Below, in pieces: positions 47,624 through 52,470 of a stretch of 64,000 bases of DNA (position 1 is its first letter; each line of letters starts with the position of its first letter). The notes under the pieces were generated by a model, which worked only from the letters and a program-made list of their open reading frames with translations, did no database searches and was not told the origin of the DNA. The stretch spans positions 1 through 64,000 of the forward strand of contig JAFZAC010000027.1 of NCBI GenBank assembly GCA_017548365.1. The letters run 5' to 3'. This DNA comes from Muribaculaceae bacterium (lineage in GTDB: Bacteria; Bacteroidota; Bacteroidia; Bacteroidales; Muribaculaceae). Position numbers and translations under genes: made by a program.

Positions 47624-48649
47624 CTACAAAGCGAGGCGCAGACCACGGGTATTGCCGCGAGCGTCAGGGTTCTGCTGATTGCGATAATACACTTTCATAA
47701 GTCCTGGATTGTTGGTGATAAAGTTGCCACCGCGCATAACGCGACGAGTTCCCGTCTCGGGACCTGTGGGATTGGTCTGTGGATCAACCGGCTCAGCACC
47801 GTAGGTGGCGAACCAGTCAAAGCACCATTCTTCAACGTTGCCACACATGTCGTAGATTCCAAGTTCGTTTGGAGCCTTGGTTGCCACAGTCTGTGAACCC
47901 CAGCCATCAGTCCAAAGTGTGGGTGAAGGAATCGTTTCTTTGTACCAAGCAACATCATTAATGCTGTCGCTGCCGGCATACTCATAGCCATGGGTCAGGT
48001 TTCCGCCACGAGCCGCGAATTCCCATTCAGCCTCGGTTGGGAGACGGAAATTCTTGCCAGTGAGTTGACTAAGAGCTTCACAAAATGCTTGGCAGTCGCT
48101 ATAATTTATATAGTCAACAGGTCGCTGCAAGTTGATGCCTGCATCCCATGAAGCATGATTAGAATGCAATTCTTCATTTCCGTATTCATTGCAATAGCTT
48201 GGATTTGAACCCATCACAGCCACCCACAACTCCTGAGTGACTTCGGTTTGACCTATGCTATAGGTGCTCAAAGTAACTTCGTGTGCAGGATGAGCGCTAC
48301 CATTATACAGCTCGGTTCCCATCATGAAAGTACCGCCTTCAACTTCCACCATCTTGAAAGTCACGCCATTGACGGTGTATTCGGTCACTGGCGCAGGAGG
48401 CTCCTCGGGCGAAATGATTCCAAGCAAAATGTTATAAATCTCGGTTATGTCGGCACTCGTGATTGCACCATCACCATCAACATCGACAGTGGCAACATAG
48501 GTCTGGTCATTATTGAGAATGTAATTGTAAAGCGCTGTCACATCCGACACTGTTACCACGCCGTCGCAGTCAACGTCACCATACACATTGGCATTTGCAG
48601 CCACGTTGCAAGCGAAAACCGCTAAAAGAATAAGTAATGATTTCTTCAT
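47624..48649 (-). CDS. Secreted SUMF1-domain protein with N-terminal dockerin
   Basis: 341 residues. Signal peptide (1-20), dockerin with two Ca-binding repeats at 22-77 (DVDCDGVVTVSDVTALYNYIL, DVDGDGAITSADITEIYNILL), then a formylglycine-generating-enzyme-like SUMF1 domain (about 100-341: GGTFMMG, TEVTQELW, RLPTEAEWEFAARGG, GNVEEWC, VMRGGNF). The paired catalytic Cys of true FGE near the C-terminus are absent, so it is probably a binding fold rather than an oxidase. Dockerin at the N-terminus is the reverse of the other dockerin proteins here. Confidence 0.85.
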   Translation of the reverse strand: MKKSLLILLAVFACNVAANANVYGDVDCDGVVTVSDVTALYNYILNNDQTYVATVDVDGDGAITSADITEIYNILLGIISPEEPPAPVTEYTVNGVTFKMVEVEGGTFMMGTELYNGSAHPAHEVTLSTYSIGQTEVTQELWVAVMGSNPSYCNEYGNEELHSNHASWDAGINLQRPVDYINYSDCQAFCEALSQLTGKNFRLPTEAEWEFAARGGNLTHGYEYAGSDSINDVAWYKETIPSPTLWTDGWGSQTVATKAPNELGIYDMCGNVEEWCFDWFATYGAEPVDPQTNPTGPETGTRRVMRGGNFITNNPGLMKVYYRNQQNPDARGNTRGLRLAL

Positions 48650-49344: not shown

Positions 49345-50244
49345 TTACCTTGTCAACGTCTTTTGTCCATCCTCAATGACGATGCCCTTGTAGTCTTTAT
49401 CAACTTGTTGGCCCATCACGTTGTAACGAACTTCACTTTTGGGTTTGGAGTTATCTGTTACACCCACAATGCTGTTGGGCTCTCCAATGGGAACGTTTGC
49501 AGCGAGGCGCAATCCTATATAATTGTAACGGATATTCTCCAGCTCATAGATGCGGAACGTTACACGAGGACCATTGGCCGATCCACCCCAACTGCCACCA
49601 CGTCTAACACGGTTTTCACCGGTCTCAGGGCCTGTGGGCGACTCTACAGGCATCATAGGATAATCTCCATACCAATCCTGGCACCATTCAAACACATTGC
49701 CGCTCATATCATAAAGTCCCAACTCATTGGGTTGAAGCTGAGCCACGACACGCGTGCAGTCGCCATCGTGCCAAGCAACATCGTCAATATTGTTGCTGCC
49801 ACTATACTGGTAGTAGTGGGTGTAGACACCACCGCGTGCGGCATATTCCCATTCAGCCTCGGTGGGCAAGCGGAATTCTATTCCTGTGAGAGTTTGCAGT
49901 TTGCTGACGAAAGTTTGACACTCATTCCAAGTGACACGCTCAACTGGCAGATTCATGTCGCCTTGGAATCCGCTGGGGTTATCACCCATGACAGCAAGCC
50001 ACAGAGCCTGTGTCACTTCGGTTTCACCAATCAGATAATTCTCCAAACTCACAACATGGATTGGGAACTCGTCGTCTTCGGGAGTGAGCTGCTCACATGT
50101 TCCACCCATGTTGAATCGTCCGCCTTGCACTTCAATCATATTGAATGTCACGCCATTAACTGTCACTTCTCTTTTCGCCGATTCTTGAGCCCAAGCCGAA
50201 ACGCCGACAAGCAGCACAAGAAGAATAGATATTATTTTTTTCAT
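49345..50244 (-). CDS. Secreted SUMF1-domain protein with sorting-like C-terminus
   Basis: 299 residues. Signal peptide (1-19), SUMF1 domain (about 28-260: GGRFNMGG, GETEVTQALWLAVMG, RLPTEAEWEYAARGG, GNVFEWCQDW, RVRRGGSWGG). The FGE catalytic Cys pair is absent. The C-terminal YNVMGQQVDKDYKGIVIEDGQKTLTR is like a type A sorting-domain end. A paralogue of the 47.6-kb protein, with a sorting tail in place of the dockerin. An antisense open frame of 323 codons is ignored. Confidence 0.82.
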   Translation of the reverse strand: MKKIISILLVLLVGVSAWAQESAKREVTVNGVTFNMIEVQGGRFNMGGTCEQLTPEDDEFPIHVVSLENYLIGETEVTQALWLAVMGDNPSGFQGDMNLPVERVTWNECQTFVSKLQTLTGIEFRLPTEAEWEYAARGGVYTHYYQYSGSNNIDDVAWHDGDCTRVVAQLQPNELGLYDMSGNVFEWCQDWYGDYPMMPVESPTGPETGENRVRRGGSWGGSANGPRVTFRIYELENIRYNYIGLRLAANVPIGEPNSIVGVTDNSKPKSEVRYNVMGQQVDKDYKGIVIEDGQKTLTR

Positions 50245-50360: not shown

Positions 50361-50391
50361 TTGCATAGTTTATAAAAATATCGTATATTTG
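50361..50391 (+). promoter_or_regulatory. Promoter of the VYGPP lipoprotein / radical SAM operon
   Basis: TTG (50361-50363), 20 bp spacer, TATATTTG (50384-50391), consensus. Leader about 26 nt. No other promoter seen up to the end of the radical SAM gene. Confidence 0.7.
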
Positions 50392-50423
50392 CTCATTGTT
50401 TATATTTCAGAGATTTAGCAGCT

Positions 50424-50690
50424 ATGAAAAAAATGACCTTTAGTATACACAAATGGACTGTGCGCTCTTTTATGGCAATTGGTGCACTGCTTGGACTCAC
50501 AGCTTGCTCACATACTAGAAACAACGTTTCTCCCGACCCTGCCGCTGGGGTATATGGACCACCTCCTGGGTATTACCAAAGAGTGCAACCTATTGAAGAT
50601 GTCTATGGCCCACCAGTCGAGGACCTCAAACCCGATACTGCTGCTCACAAGGTAATAGAAAGGATTCAAAAACAAGAAAAAGATAATTGA
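50424..50690 (+). CDS. VYGPP lipoprotein 1, putative rSAM substrate
   Basis: 88 residues. Leader with Trp11 and lipobox Cys28 (KWTVRSFMAIGALLGLTAC), then a mature part carrying VYGPP at 43-47 and 60-64, 17 residues apart, each followed by short charged or aromatic residues (PPGYY; VEDLK). C-terminus is a Lys-rich helix. It reads as a small lipoprotein whose Tyr/Pro motif is the site of radical SAM modification; the enzyme is encoded at 51412. I recall a class called rSAM/lipoprotein systems in Bacteroidetes whose lipoproteins share a YGxP-type motif. Confidence 0.75.
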   Translation: MKKMTFSIHKWTVRSFMAIGALLGLTACSHTRNNVSPDPAAGVYGPPPGYYQRVQPIEDVYGPPVEDLKPDTAAHKVIERIQKQEKDN

Positions 50691-50708
50691 TTCCCCTAAC
50701 CACTAATT

Positions 50709-50954
50709 ATGCAAAAGAAAGGTTTGAACATAAAAAAATGGAGTGTGAGAGCTCTGATAGCAATTGGCACAATTCTAGGCTTGTCTTCATGTGGTGGAAG
50801 AATATTTTCAACCCCCAAAGTCTATGGTCCTCCTCCTGGAACCAACAATGACTCGGAAGTGGTTGAGGACGTCTATGGTCCACCAGTTGAAGACAAAAAA
50901 GACAGCGACACTACTGCTACCGAGAATTCAATACTGCAACAACCACTAAACTAA
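50709..50954 (+). CDS. VYGPP lipoprotein 2, putative rSAM substrate
   Basis: 81 residues. Leader again with Trp11 and lipobox Cys28 (KWSVRALIAIGTILGLSSC). VYGPP at 38-42 and 55-59, the same 17-residue spacing as its neighbour, and the second is followed by VEDKK, close to VEDLK of lipoprotein 1. Nineteen bp after the first gene. Clear tandem duplicate. Confidence 0.75.
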   Translation: MQKKGLNIKKWSVRALIAIGTILGLSSCGGRIFSTPKVYGPPPGTNNDSEVVEDVYGPPVEDKKDSDTTATENSILQQPLN

Positions 50955-50967
50955 ATTATCATCATTT

Positions 50968-51381
50968 ATGAATCACATTATTTTATCAACTAAGAAATGG
51001 ATAGTCAGAGCCCTGCTAGGACTCGGCATCACCTTTGGGCTCACAGCATGCTCTGGCTCGGGAAGCGACAACTCCGGTTCATCAACCGACTCTACCAAGA
51101 CCAAGAAACATGAAGCTCCCTCTATACATAAAGAAATAAAAAACCACAAAATTGAGTCCAGAGGTAAAAAAATCGAGCAAATCGACAAGAATAAACTCAA
51201 GGGAAAAGAGCTCAAAGAGGATATAAAGCGCAAGAAAAAAGAAGAAAAAATTGATCGAAAACCCCAAGCCAATGTTTATGGCCCGCCACGTGACATACCC
51301 AAGGTTTATGGCCCGCCACGCGACAATACTGATCAAAAAAAACCTACCCCACAAAAAGCGCCACGCGACAAAAAAGAGTAA
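50968..51381 (+). CDS. VYGPP lipoprotein 3, longer, lysine-rich
   Basis: 137 residues. Leader with Trp11 and Cys28 (KWIVRALLGLGITFGLTAC). Between the lipobox and the motifs is a Ser-rich stretch (29-45), then a Lys/Glu-rich helical spacer (about 45-100). VYGPP at 103-107 and 113-117, now ten residues apart, both followed by RD. So the motif is nearer the C-terminus and spacing differs. Thirteen bp after gene 2. Confidence 0.75.
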   Translation: MNHIILSTKKWIVRALLGLGITFGLTACSGSGSDNSGSSTDSTKTKKHEAPSIHKEIKNHKIESRGKKIEQIDKNKLKGKELKEDIKRKKKEEKIDRKPQANVYGPPRDIPKVYGPPRDNTDQKKPTPQKAPRDKKE

Positions 51382-51411
51382 TTGACCAACTACTCCACCC
51401 TCTCGACAGCA

Positions 51412-52470
51412 ATGAAAACAAGCCAAATTTTCCAGCTTGAAGAAACAAGGCGAGAAAGGCGGTGGCTCGAGAAGAACCACCCGATTCGACAGCTATTCTG
51501 GGAATGTACCCTCAGATGCAACCTTGCGTGCCGTCACTGTGGCAGCGACTGCCGAAAGGAAGCTCTCGTCCCCGACATGCCACTCGACCACTTCATCCCA
51601 GTACTCGACGACGTAGCCACCATTGCACCACCCGAGAAAGTGCTTGTCAACACCGTAGGCGGTGAGCCTCTGGTGCGTCCCGACATTCTGGAATGCGGGA
51701 AAGCAATTACTGACCGAGGCTTCTCATGGGGATTTGTCACTAACGGTGTGTTGCTTACCGAACCTTTGATGCACAAGCTCATAGATGCTGGCTTGCGCAC
51801 AGTTGCCGTGAGTCTCGACGGGCTTGAACCTGAGCACAACTGGCTGCGCGGCAACTCCTACAACGGCGCCATGAATGCAATTAAGCTCCTGGTCGACACG
51901 CCCCTACTTTGGGATGTTATCACCTGCGTGAATCAGCGAAACTTCTCCACCCTACCACAGCTCAAGCAGCACCTCATCGACACAGGTGTGAAAAAGTGGC
52001 GCATCTTCACCATCTTTCCACAAGGACGAGCAAAACTCAATCCCGAACTATTCCTAAGCCCTCAGCAATTCCGGGAACTCATGGAATTTATAGCATCAAC
52101 CCGTAAAGAAGGGGGCATAAATCTGTCATACAGCTGCGAAGGATTCTTGGGCGAATATGAGGGTGAAGTGAGAAATCACATCTATCGATGCGATGCAGGT
52201 ACTATGACAGCTTCGGTGCTTGCAAACGGTGACATCAGCGGATGCATGAGCATACGCTCTCATTATGCTCAGGGAAACATCTATCGTGACCGCTTCAGCG
52301 ATGTGTGGAACAACCGTTTTGAACAAATGCGTGACCGACGTTGGATGAAGCACGACGACTGCAAGCGATGCAAGATGTGGGACTGGTGTGCCGGTGGGCC
52401 GTTCCACCTGCGCGGCGATAACGGAGAGATGCTGCACTGCAACTATCTCACCCTATGCGAAGCTAGATAA
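51412..52470 (+). CDS. Radical SAM/SPASM enzyme paired with lipoproteins
   Basis: 352 residues. The cluster binds through C36-C40-C43 (CNLACRHC), preceded by FWECTLR. Radical SAM barrel (about 30-230) with NTVGGEPLVRPDI and VSLDGLEPEHNWLRG, then a SPASM-type Cys-rich C-terminus (YRCDAG, ISGCMS, DDCKRCKMWDWC, LHCNYLTLC) for auxiliary Fe-S clusters. Such enzymes modify ribosomally made peptides or proteins. It closes the operon of three VYGPP lipoproteins (30 bp gap), so these are the evident substrates. ATG at 51412 preferred to a TTG right after the previous stop. The chemistry is unknown. Confidence 0.88.
   Translation: MKTSQIFQLEETRRERRWLEKNHPIRQLFWECTLRCNLACRHCGSDCRKEALVPDMPLDHFIPVLDDVATIAPPEKVLVNTVGGEPLVRPDILECGKAITDRGFSWGFVTNGVLLTEPLMHKLIDAGLRTVAVSLDGLEPEHNWLRGNSYNGAMNAIKLLVDTPLLWDVITCVNQRNFSTLPQLKQHLIDTGVKKWRIFTIFPQGRAKLNPELFLSPQQFRELMEFIASTRKEGGINLSYSCEGFLGEYEGEVRNHIYRCDAGTMTASVLANGDISGCMSIRSHYAQGNIYRDRFSDVWNNRFEQMRDRRWMKHDDCKRCKMWDWCAGGPFHLRGDNGEMLHCNYLTLCEAR

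What the first reader, a model, noticed from the sequence alone, without database searches (positions are those of the whole stretch)
50361..52470. Three tandem VYGPP lipoproteins with a dedicated radical SAM/SPASM enzyme
Seen: one promoter, three small genes with nearly identical leaders (Trp11 and lipobox Cys28 in all three), two VYGPP motifs each, and a radical SAM/SPASM enzyme as the last gene. Known: I recall bioinformatic rSAM/lipoprotein families in Bacteroidetes with a conserved Tyr-Gly-x-Pro motif, but no established product. Inference: the enzyme installs a cross-link or other change on VYGPP in lipid-anchored, surface-exposed small proteins, making a multi-substrate system.
Basis: partly seen in the sequence, partly recalled or inferred. 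Interest (0 to 1): 0.88.

Follow-up and report, generated by a model that had tools for sequence, protein, structure and literature searches.

The report
Tyrosine-splicing enzyme with tagged lipoproteins
A bacterium whose nearest named relatives are Muribaculaceae encodes three small lipoproteins, each with two copies of one five-residue tag (VYGPP), in one gene row with a radical enzyme that likely alters the tyrosine of every tag, and is predicted to do so by cutting a tyrosine fragment out and rejoining the chain, which would give membrane-anchored proteins with an unusual reactive backbone.

Summary
The enzyme is TIGR04133 (rSAM_w_lipo, 488 bits, cut-off 425), a named family whose chemistry I found nowhere. 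The lipoproteins do not match its named partner TIGR04134. In 101 genomes of the genus, VYGPP lipoproteins (E<=1e-9) occur in 32 of 32 genomes with this enzyme and 1 of 69 without; 14 of 73 lipoprotein hits lie away from the enzyme gene, so it probably acts in trans. Across 61 TIGR04133 loci the partner scaffold and the residue before Tyr change; Tyr-Gly stays in 60. In the trees TIGR04133 groups with TIGR04103/TIGR03913-like enzymes apart from MftC, NirJ, TIGR04053, TIGR04347 and other SPASM rows (100/99). TIGR04103 is, by recall, the family of the PlpX splicease, which excises tyramine from X-Tyr-Gly; a Nostoc TIGR04103 partner ends in LYGLPPELF. Best reading: tyramine excision at VYGPP (0.42). 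Against it: changed active-site and SPASM residues, no PlpY-like gene in the operon, and Ala after Tyr in most motifs of clostridial relatives. Surface exposure is not supported.

The parts
50384..50391 (+). promoter -7-like element TATATTTG (Bacteroidetes type, consensus recalled)
   Evidence: such an element in 14 of 16 group A loci, window included, no shuffle control
50424..50690 (+). VYGPP lipoprotein 1 (88 aa); Tyr44 and Tyr61 in VYGPP, lipobox Cys28
   Evidence: no NCBIfam hit at E<=1; Pfam LPAM_1 16.6 bits, below its cut-off of 20
50709..50954 (+). VYGPP lipoprotein 2 (81 aa); Tyr39 and Tyr56 in VYGPP, lipobox Cys28
50968..51381 (+). VYGPP lipoprotein 3 (137 aa), Lys-rich spacer; Tyr104 and Tyr114 in VYGPP, lipobox Cys28
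51412..52470 (+). radical SAM/SPASM enzyme, TIGR04133 (352 aa)
   Evidence: NCBIfam 488 bits, cut-off 425; Pfam Radical_SAM and SPASM over cut-off; AlphaFold2 mean pLDDT 92.7, SPASM peptide-maturase fold

Best explanation
The TIGR04133 radical SAM/SPASM enzyme likely modifies the Tyr-Gly of every VYGPP in the three co-encoded lipoproteins before export, and is predicted to do so as a splicease: it would excise the tyramine part of Tyr and rejoin Val to Gly through an alpha-keto amide (loss of C8H9NO, 135.07 Da per site). Shown: the operon, the motifs, the enzyme family, co-occurrence of enzyme and lipoproteins, persistence of Tyr-Gly across unrelated partner scaffolds, and grouping of TIGR04133 with TIGR04103/TIGR03913-like enzymes. 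Inferred: that the enzyme acts on VYGPP at all, that the chemistry is tyramine excision, that the conserved K-x3-R signal sequence is the recognition leader, and that unlinked lipoproteins are substrates in trans. Also inferred: the mature lipoproteins face the periplasm from the outer membrane and carry Val-derived ketoamides, a group that in known spliceotides inhibits proteases.
For: (1) Family: 488 bits to TIGR04133, next best TIGR04103 at 131.5; for two other TIGR04133 enzymes (L051, L075) TIGR04103 ranks only fifth. (2) Trees: TIGR04133 plus TIGR04103/TIGR03913-like rows form one side of a branch at 99/92, 100/99 and 100/99; the other side holds 11 rows: MftC (2), NirJ, TIGR04053 (2), TIGR04347, ACGX, one StsB-like and three unassigned. 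(3) Motif: PlpX excises tyramine from Xaa-Tyr-Gly (PMC11002830, passage; PMC10533398, passages), and the published tags built on the PlpA2 core read PIRP(L/G)YGLPI; a TIGR04103 enzyme of Nostoc sp. C057 (853 bits, cut-off 725) has next to it a Nif11 precursor ending GGRGSIALYGLPPELF, close to VYGPPPG here. (4) Tyr-Gly is the constant part: 60 of 61 TIGR04133 loci have a YG partner, while X is V, K, M, R, L, Y, E or C; YG.P is in 16 of 17 group C partners against a shuffled mean of 0.27 (these 17 had been picked by a YG pattern). (5) Co-occurrence in 32 of 32 versus 1 of 69 genomes, Fisher p 1.6e-25, kinship of the genomes not corrected. (6) Several sites per precursor and varied protein scaffolds are tolerated by PlpX (PMC10373908, passage; PMC10533398).
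Against: TIGR04133 lacks the last Cys of the SPASM CX2CX5CX3C in 47 of 47 rows, while 22 of 22 TIGR04103/03913-like rows have it; it has extra Cys at 47, 172 and 242 (from the ATG) in 47 of 47, of which C47 and C242 occur in 1 of 22 and C172 in 0 of 22 of the others; and it has W-R-x-F where those have W-Q-x-Q (R in 47 of 47, F in 46 of 47; Q-x-Q in 22 of 22). The chemistry may have changed. The TIGR04103 score (131.5) is far below that family's cut-off (725). No PlpY-like gene lies in the operon. In clostridial relatives of the TIGR04103-like set the repeated motif is mostly VYAGP, not XYG, and one Azospirillum DUF1843 partner has MYMAT, so the shared element may be Tyr-x-x-Pro and not a splice site. 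In the splicing paper the LYG tags placed in FtsZ were not modified; two GYG tags were (PMC10533398 Table 1). In eight group C loci X is the lipobox Cys itself (CYGTP, CYGVP, CYGAP), which would put the altered backbone at the lipidated residue. That TIGR04103 is PlpX's InterPro family (IPR026482) is recall. No mass spectrum exists here.
Confidence: 0.42

Rival explanations
1. The enzyme acts on Tyr of VYGPP but with another outcome: oxidation, C-alpha/C-beta cleavage, or a Tyr-centred link that keeps the backbone. TIGR04133 would be a sister of the spliceases that changed its chemistry.
For: Loss of one SPASM Cys, gain of three Cys, and W-Q-x-Q to W-R-x-F across 47 TIGR04133 rows; relatives with VYAGP show that the clan motif is wider than XYG. 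MftC, of an outgroup family, decarboxylates a Tyr and links it to an adjacent Val (PMC8326336, passage; PMC9062424, passage).
Against: In two families (TIGR04103 and TIGR04133) Gly follows Tyr and Pro stands at Tyr+3, and the TIGR04103 family is linked to splicing (link by recall).
Confidence: 0.4
2. A three-residue cyclophane: the Tyr ring is cross-linked to the side chain two residues on.
For: Aromatic-x-x motifs with SPASM rSAM enzymes are typical of that class (recalled).
Against: The residue at +2 is Pro in 6 of 6 motifs here and can be Gly in relatives (KYGGP, VYGGP). Of the 25 NCBIfam families shown for the enzyme (74 matched) only TIGR04133 reaches its cut-off, and none of those shown is named as cyclophane-forming.
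Confidence: 0.07
3. The enzyme does not modify VYGPP; VYGPP is a binding tag for another partner, and the enzyme acts elsewhere on these proteins or on another substrate.
For: Some genomes hold lipoproteins away from the enzyme, and one (G408, 87% complete) has a lipoprotein with no enzyme found.
Against: 32 of 32 enzyme genomes have the lipoproteins; Tyr-Gly is what partners of different scaffolds share.
Confidence: 0.11

Closest known systems
TIGR04133 / TIGR04134 'rSAM/lipoprotein system' (NCBIfam, hypothetical equivalogs)
   Same: The enzyme is a full member (488 bits, cut-off 425); small lipoproteins encoded beside it, with Tyr-Gly-x-Pro.
   Different: The window's lipoproteins do not match TIGR04134 (no hit at E<=1): no recognisable domain, two VYGPP each, three tandem copies, a K-x3-R signal sequence, and in some genomes further copies far from the enzyme.
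Spliceotides, PlpX/PlpY splicease (IPR026482; TIGR04103 by recall)
   Same: X-Tyr-Gly-x-Pro substrate motif, several sites per precursor, SPASM rSAM enzyme on the same side of the tree.
   Different: Far below the TIGR04103 cut-off, no PlpY-like gene in the operon, changed SPASM Cys and W-R-x-F; signal-sequence lipoproteins and no Nif11/NHLP leader.
TIGR03913 GDL-motif peptide maturases with DUF1843 proteins
   Same: Same side of the tree; partner with LYGVG, PYGVA or PYGPA near its N-terminus.
   Different: Small DUF1843 proteins without signal sequence or lipobox; one Azospirillum partner has MYMAT, not YG.

Membership tests
TIGR04133 rSAM_w_lipo | score over the curated cut-off (425 bits) | tested here: met
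   488 bits
TIGR04133 rSAM_w_lipo | small partner lipoprotein encoded beside the enzyme (feature inferred from the family name) | tested here: met
   three lipobox proteins directly upstream; Pfam LPAM_1 is below cut-off for two and absent for one, so lipidation rests on the lipobox
TIGR04134 lipo_with_rSAM | score over the curated cut-off (39.8 bits) | tested here: not met
   no hit at E<=1 for any of the three; as a contrast the Treponema partner scores 43.7 and the P. distasonis partner 207.1
PlpX-type splicease (TIGR04103) | score over the curated cut-off (725 bits) | tested here: not met
   131.5 bits
PlpX-type splicease | X-Tyr-Gly in the substrate | tested here: met
   6 of 6 motifs in the window
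PlpX-type splicease | PlpY/RRE partner protein | tested here: inconclusive
   none in the operon, which holds only three lipoproteins and the enzyme; an RRE gene elsewhere in the genome was not sought
PlpX-type splicease | tyramine loss, -135.07 Da per site | not testable with these tools
   needs mass spectrometry
SPASM radical SAM peptide maturase | radical SAM CX3CX2C and SPASM domain | tested here: met
SPASM radical SAM peptide maturase | seven-Cys SPASM pattern | tested here: not met
   last Cys of CX2CX5CX3C absent in 47 of 47 TIGR04133 rows, present in 22 of 22 TIGR04103-like rows
Three-residue cyclophane maturase | reactive side chain at Tyr+2 | tested here: inconclusive
   Pro at +2 here, Gly allowed in relatives
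Bacteroidetes surface lipoprotein | acidic export signal just after the lipidated Cys | tested here: not met
   window mature N-termini CSHTRN, CGGRIF and CSGSGS; 102 of 118 family members have no acidic residue at +2..+6; signal as in PMC5080379

The most novel reading that the evidence does not exclude
One wide clan of SPASM radical enzymes (TIGR04133, TIGR04103, TIGR03913 and unnamed clostridial groups) excises or rebuilds tyrosine at Tyr-x-x-Pro tags in ordinary cell proteins. In Bacteroidales the products are lipid-anchored proteins with a ketoamide backbone, in some lineages at the lipidated cysteine itself, acting as envelope-bound protease traps that one enzyme makes from a set of scattered genes.
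Probability: 0.3. Interest if true: 0.87.

Novelty: new variant of a known kind. Interest (0 to 1): 0.66.

Why it matters
It would turn a family that has been only a name (rSAM/lipoprotein system) into a testable reaction with a definite mass shift, and would place ribosomal beta-amino acids in envelope lipoproteins of Bacteroidales. Tyr-x-x-Pro proteins stand beside 72 of 80 inspected TIGR04103-like genes, mostly clostridial, so one co-expression experiment would bear on a large group of uncharacterised enzymes.

Tried and rejected
FGE-sulfatase genes (47624-48649, 49345-50244) as partners: rejected, not found beside 18 other group A enzymes. Prophage or plasmid origin of the unit: not pursued. 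A DNA pattern for the PlpA2 core in genome contigs: 0 matches. No chain named PlpX or splicease is among the solved structures matched by sequence, and PlpX itself was not fetched; Nostoc sp. C057 served as the TIGR04103 representative. The main splicease survey (Scott et al. 2022, Chem 8:2659) is not held (the DOI was a wrong guess) and the Haft and Basu 2011 paper (recalled) is not held, so either may already treat TIGR04133; this could not be checked. The held library has no paper with TIGR04133 or the rSAM/lipoprotein phrases nor with VYGPP, VYAGP, TIGR04103, TIGR03913 or IPR026404 (its three hits are for DUF1843: passages of PMC10994174 were seen, the other two in listing only).

Limits of the trees: the TIGR04103-like set is one group (76/77) but not; searches had narrower outgroups; the TIGR04133 branch is long (1.5-2.0), so its exact place inside or beside that set is unsure; AhbD rows were not available. 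Limits of the counts: a narrower reading of TIGR04133 loci (YG.P only, first Met, fixed distances) gave 45 of 61 with an adjacent partner against 6 of 321 distant same-strand ORFs; 55 of 61 is the count with YG.P or YG[PV]R within -3 to +4 kb; 60 of 61 after reading the six remaining loci by eye. For the linkage count I used lipoprotein hits with E<=1e-9; one search also lists 11 weaker hits (1.9e-6 to 8.1e-4) in 10 genomes, of which G030 and G069 have the enzyme and G397, G073, G035, G084, G416, G009, G079 and G082 do not; read these are short or partial matches, and they were left out. G013 counts as having the enzyme though its gene is split over two contigs. Dropped rows: two chance ORFs (L059, L060) before the group B shuffles; TIGR04133 pieces of G008, G013 and G058 were not fetched as loci; G071 was fetched later (L221) and is not among the 61.

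Full report
What is there. Searches confirm the finding base by base: three lipoprotein genes (50424-50690, 50709-50954, 50968-51381) and a radical SAM gene (51412-52470), all on the + strand, 13-30 bases apart, with one TAnnTTTG promoter-like element at 50384 (the consensus is recalled) and a convergent glycerate kinase after the last gene. Each lipoprotein has Trp11, Cys28 and two VYGPP. In 1000 shuffles of the three proteins VYGPP never occurs, and six of their eight tyrosines are in VYGPP.

The lipoproteins. None matches TIGR04134, the named partner family of TIGR04133, while partners in Treponema saccharophilum and Parabacteroides distasonis do. A profile of 11 rows finds 163 proteins; of the 120 listed, two of them the window's own, all hold VYGPP, 111 have K-x3-R in the first 30 residues, 112 a lipobox by pattern, and the residue before YG is Val in 273 of 281 cases. 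The profile contains VYGPP, so the first figure is partly built in. Few relatives are named: among the 120 enzyme rows, three at 79-80% identity are Muribaculaceae and one at 57% is Prevotella; two lipoproteins are named Muribaculaceae. Four listed lipoproteins (P0353, P0356, P0358, P0360) have other leaders and up to six VYGPP.

Linkage. In 101 genomes of the genus the window-type enzyme (group A) is in 32 and the lipoproteins (E<=1e-9) in 33; 32 have both, one (G408) the lipoprotein alone. Of 73 lipoprotein hits (a few proteins counted twice because of split hits) 59 lie within 3 kb of the enzyme and 14 elsewhere; 31 of 32 enzymes have a linked lipoprotein, and the exception, G010, has six hits on other contigs. 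Weaker hits were left out (see Tried and rejected). Unlinked copies stand beside an OPT-like transporter gene in four genomes (Pfam PF03169 tested in one).

Other TIGR04133 loci. I fetched 60 loci of TIGR04133 hits and with the window examined 61; groups are by phmmer score to the window enzyme. Group A (over 600 bits): 17 of 18 have VYGPP lipoproteins directly upstream, a few with KYGPP besides. Group B (29; 28 of the same genus and L084): in the 28 the partner is downstream, with a hydrophobic N-terminus, and mostly YG followed by V, A, P, S or G and then P, R or K; of two tested, one ends in an acyl-carrier-like domain and one in a TonB C-terminal domain. Group C (14): 13 have small partners upstream, 16 of 17 proteins with one YG.P, in eight loci directly after the lipobox Cys (CYGTP, CYGVP, CYGAP); L099 has a downstream homologue with QYGSW. 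YG.P or YG[PV]R partners by pattern: 55 of 61; with the six remaining loci read by eye, 60 of 61 have a YG partner. Tyr-Gly is thus what partners of unrelated scaffold share.

Clan. I brought in TIGR04103/TIGR03913-like enzymes. In the trees they group with TIGR04133 against other SPASM enzymes: 99/92 (12 outgroup rows), 100/99 (8 rows), 100/99 (11 rows including MftC, NirJ, TIGR04053 and TIGR04347). The Nostoc sp. C057 TIGR04103 enzyme (853 bits) stands in a cluster with Nif11 and NHLP precursors, like plp as described in PMC11002830 (passage), and its Nif11 precursor ends in LYGLPPELF. PlpX excises tyramine at X-Tyr-Gly; published tags on the PlpA2 core read PIRP(L/G)YGLPI, of which GYG forms were modified at two FtsZ sites and LYG forms at none of those tried (PMC10533398, passages and Table 1). 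The shared X-Tyr-Gly-x-Pro core is the heart of the splicing hypothesis.

What speaks against. Of 80 TIGR04103-like loci, mostly clostridial, 72 have an adjacent protein with a loose Tyr-x-x-Pro motif, and the residue after Tyr is Ala in 197 of 243 motifs and Gly in 12. Control: 81 of 282 adjacent ORFs against 32 of 1075 distant ones have the loose motif, 64 against 0 have it twice or more; with a strict pattern 65 of 80 loci against 0 of 1075 distant ORFs. So the clan motif is wider than X-Tyr-Gly, and motif likeness alone does not fix the chemistry. The W-Q-x-Q of the TIGR04103-like rows is W-R-x-F in TIGR04133, and no PlpY-like gene is in the operon. I therefore hold modification at the VYGPP tyrosine as likely (0.89 over the best reading and the first two rivals), and tyramine excision as the single best chemistry at 0.42.

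Where it would act. The enzyme shows no signal sequence and the lipoproteins do, so modification before export is the natural order (inference). Surface display is not supported: 102 of 118 family members have no acidic residue at +2 to +6, unlike the published export signal (PMC5080379, abstract and passages). If splicing is right, Val-ketoamides on a lipid anchor would be formed; known beta-residue products inhibit proteases (PMC10373908, passage; PMC11117315, passage), so an envelope protease trap is the most concrete role, untested.

Novelty. The enzyme family is named; the VYGPP lipoprotein family, its dispersed copies, and the motif and tree link to spliceases turned up in no paper in the searches, but the key survey (Scott et al. 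2022) could not be read.

Noticed in passing
L051 (window's own genome, G000:C25:25642-26685): Second TIGR04133 enzyme (513 bits) with a downstream protein carrying MYGVR and LYGPR; of two such partners tested in other genomes one has an acyl-carrier-like domain (PF00550, L089) and one a TonB_C domain (PF03544, L054).
   Followed up: partly
L122-L201 (72 of 80 loci): TIGR04103-like rSAM genes, mostly of Clostridia, with adjacent proteins holding up to ten VYAGP repeats, some with a CxxC zinc-ribbon-like part.
   Followed up: partly
L253, L255, L257, L261: Unlinked VYGPP proteins directly beside an OPT-like transporter gene (PF03169 tested in L253 only) in four genomes; one copy (L253 5563-5907) lacks the lipobox Cys.
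   Followed up: partly
L265 (Treponema saccharophilum plasmid): TIGR04133 pair with a CYGMP lipoprotein outside Bacteroidota, on a plasmid.
   Followed up: partly
L115: TIGR04103-like enzyme followed by a 214 aa protein with six KYGYP; this enzyme alone of 22 such rows shares C47 and C242 with TIGR04133.
   Followed up: no
window 47624-48649 (-): Protein with a dockerin I domain fused to an FGE-sulfatase domain.
   Followed up: no
L099: Group C homologue without the lipobox Cys; QYGSW at a signal peptidase I-like site, Tyr-Gly kept.
   Followed up: no
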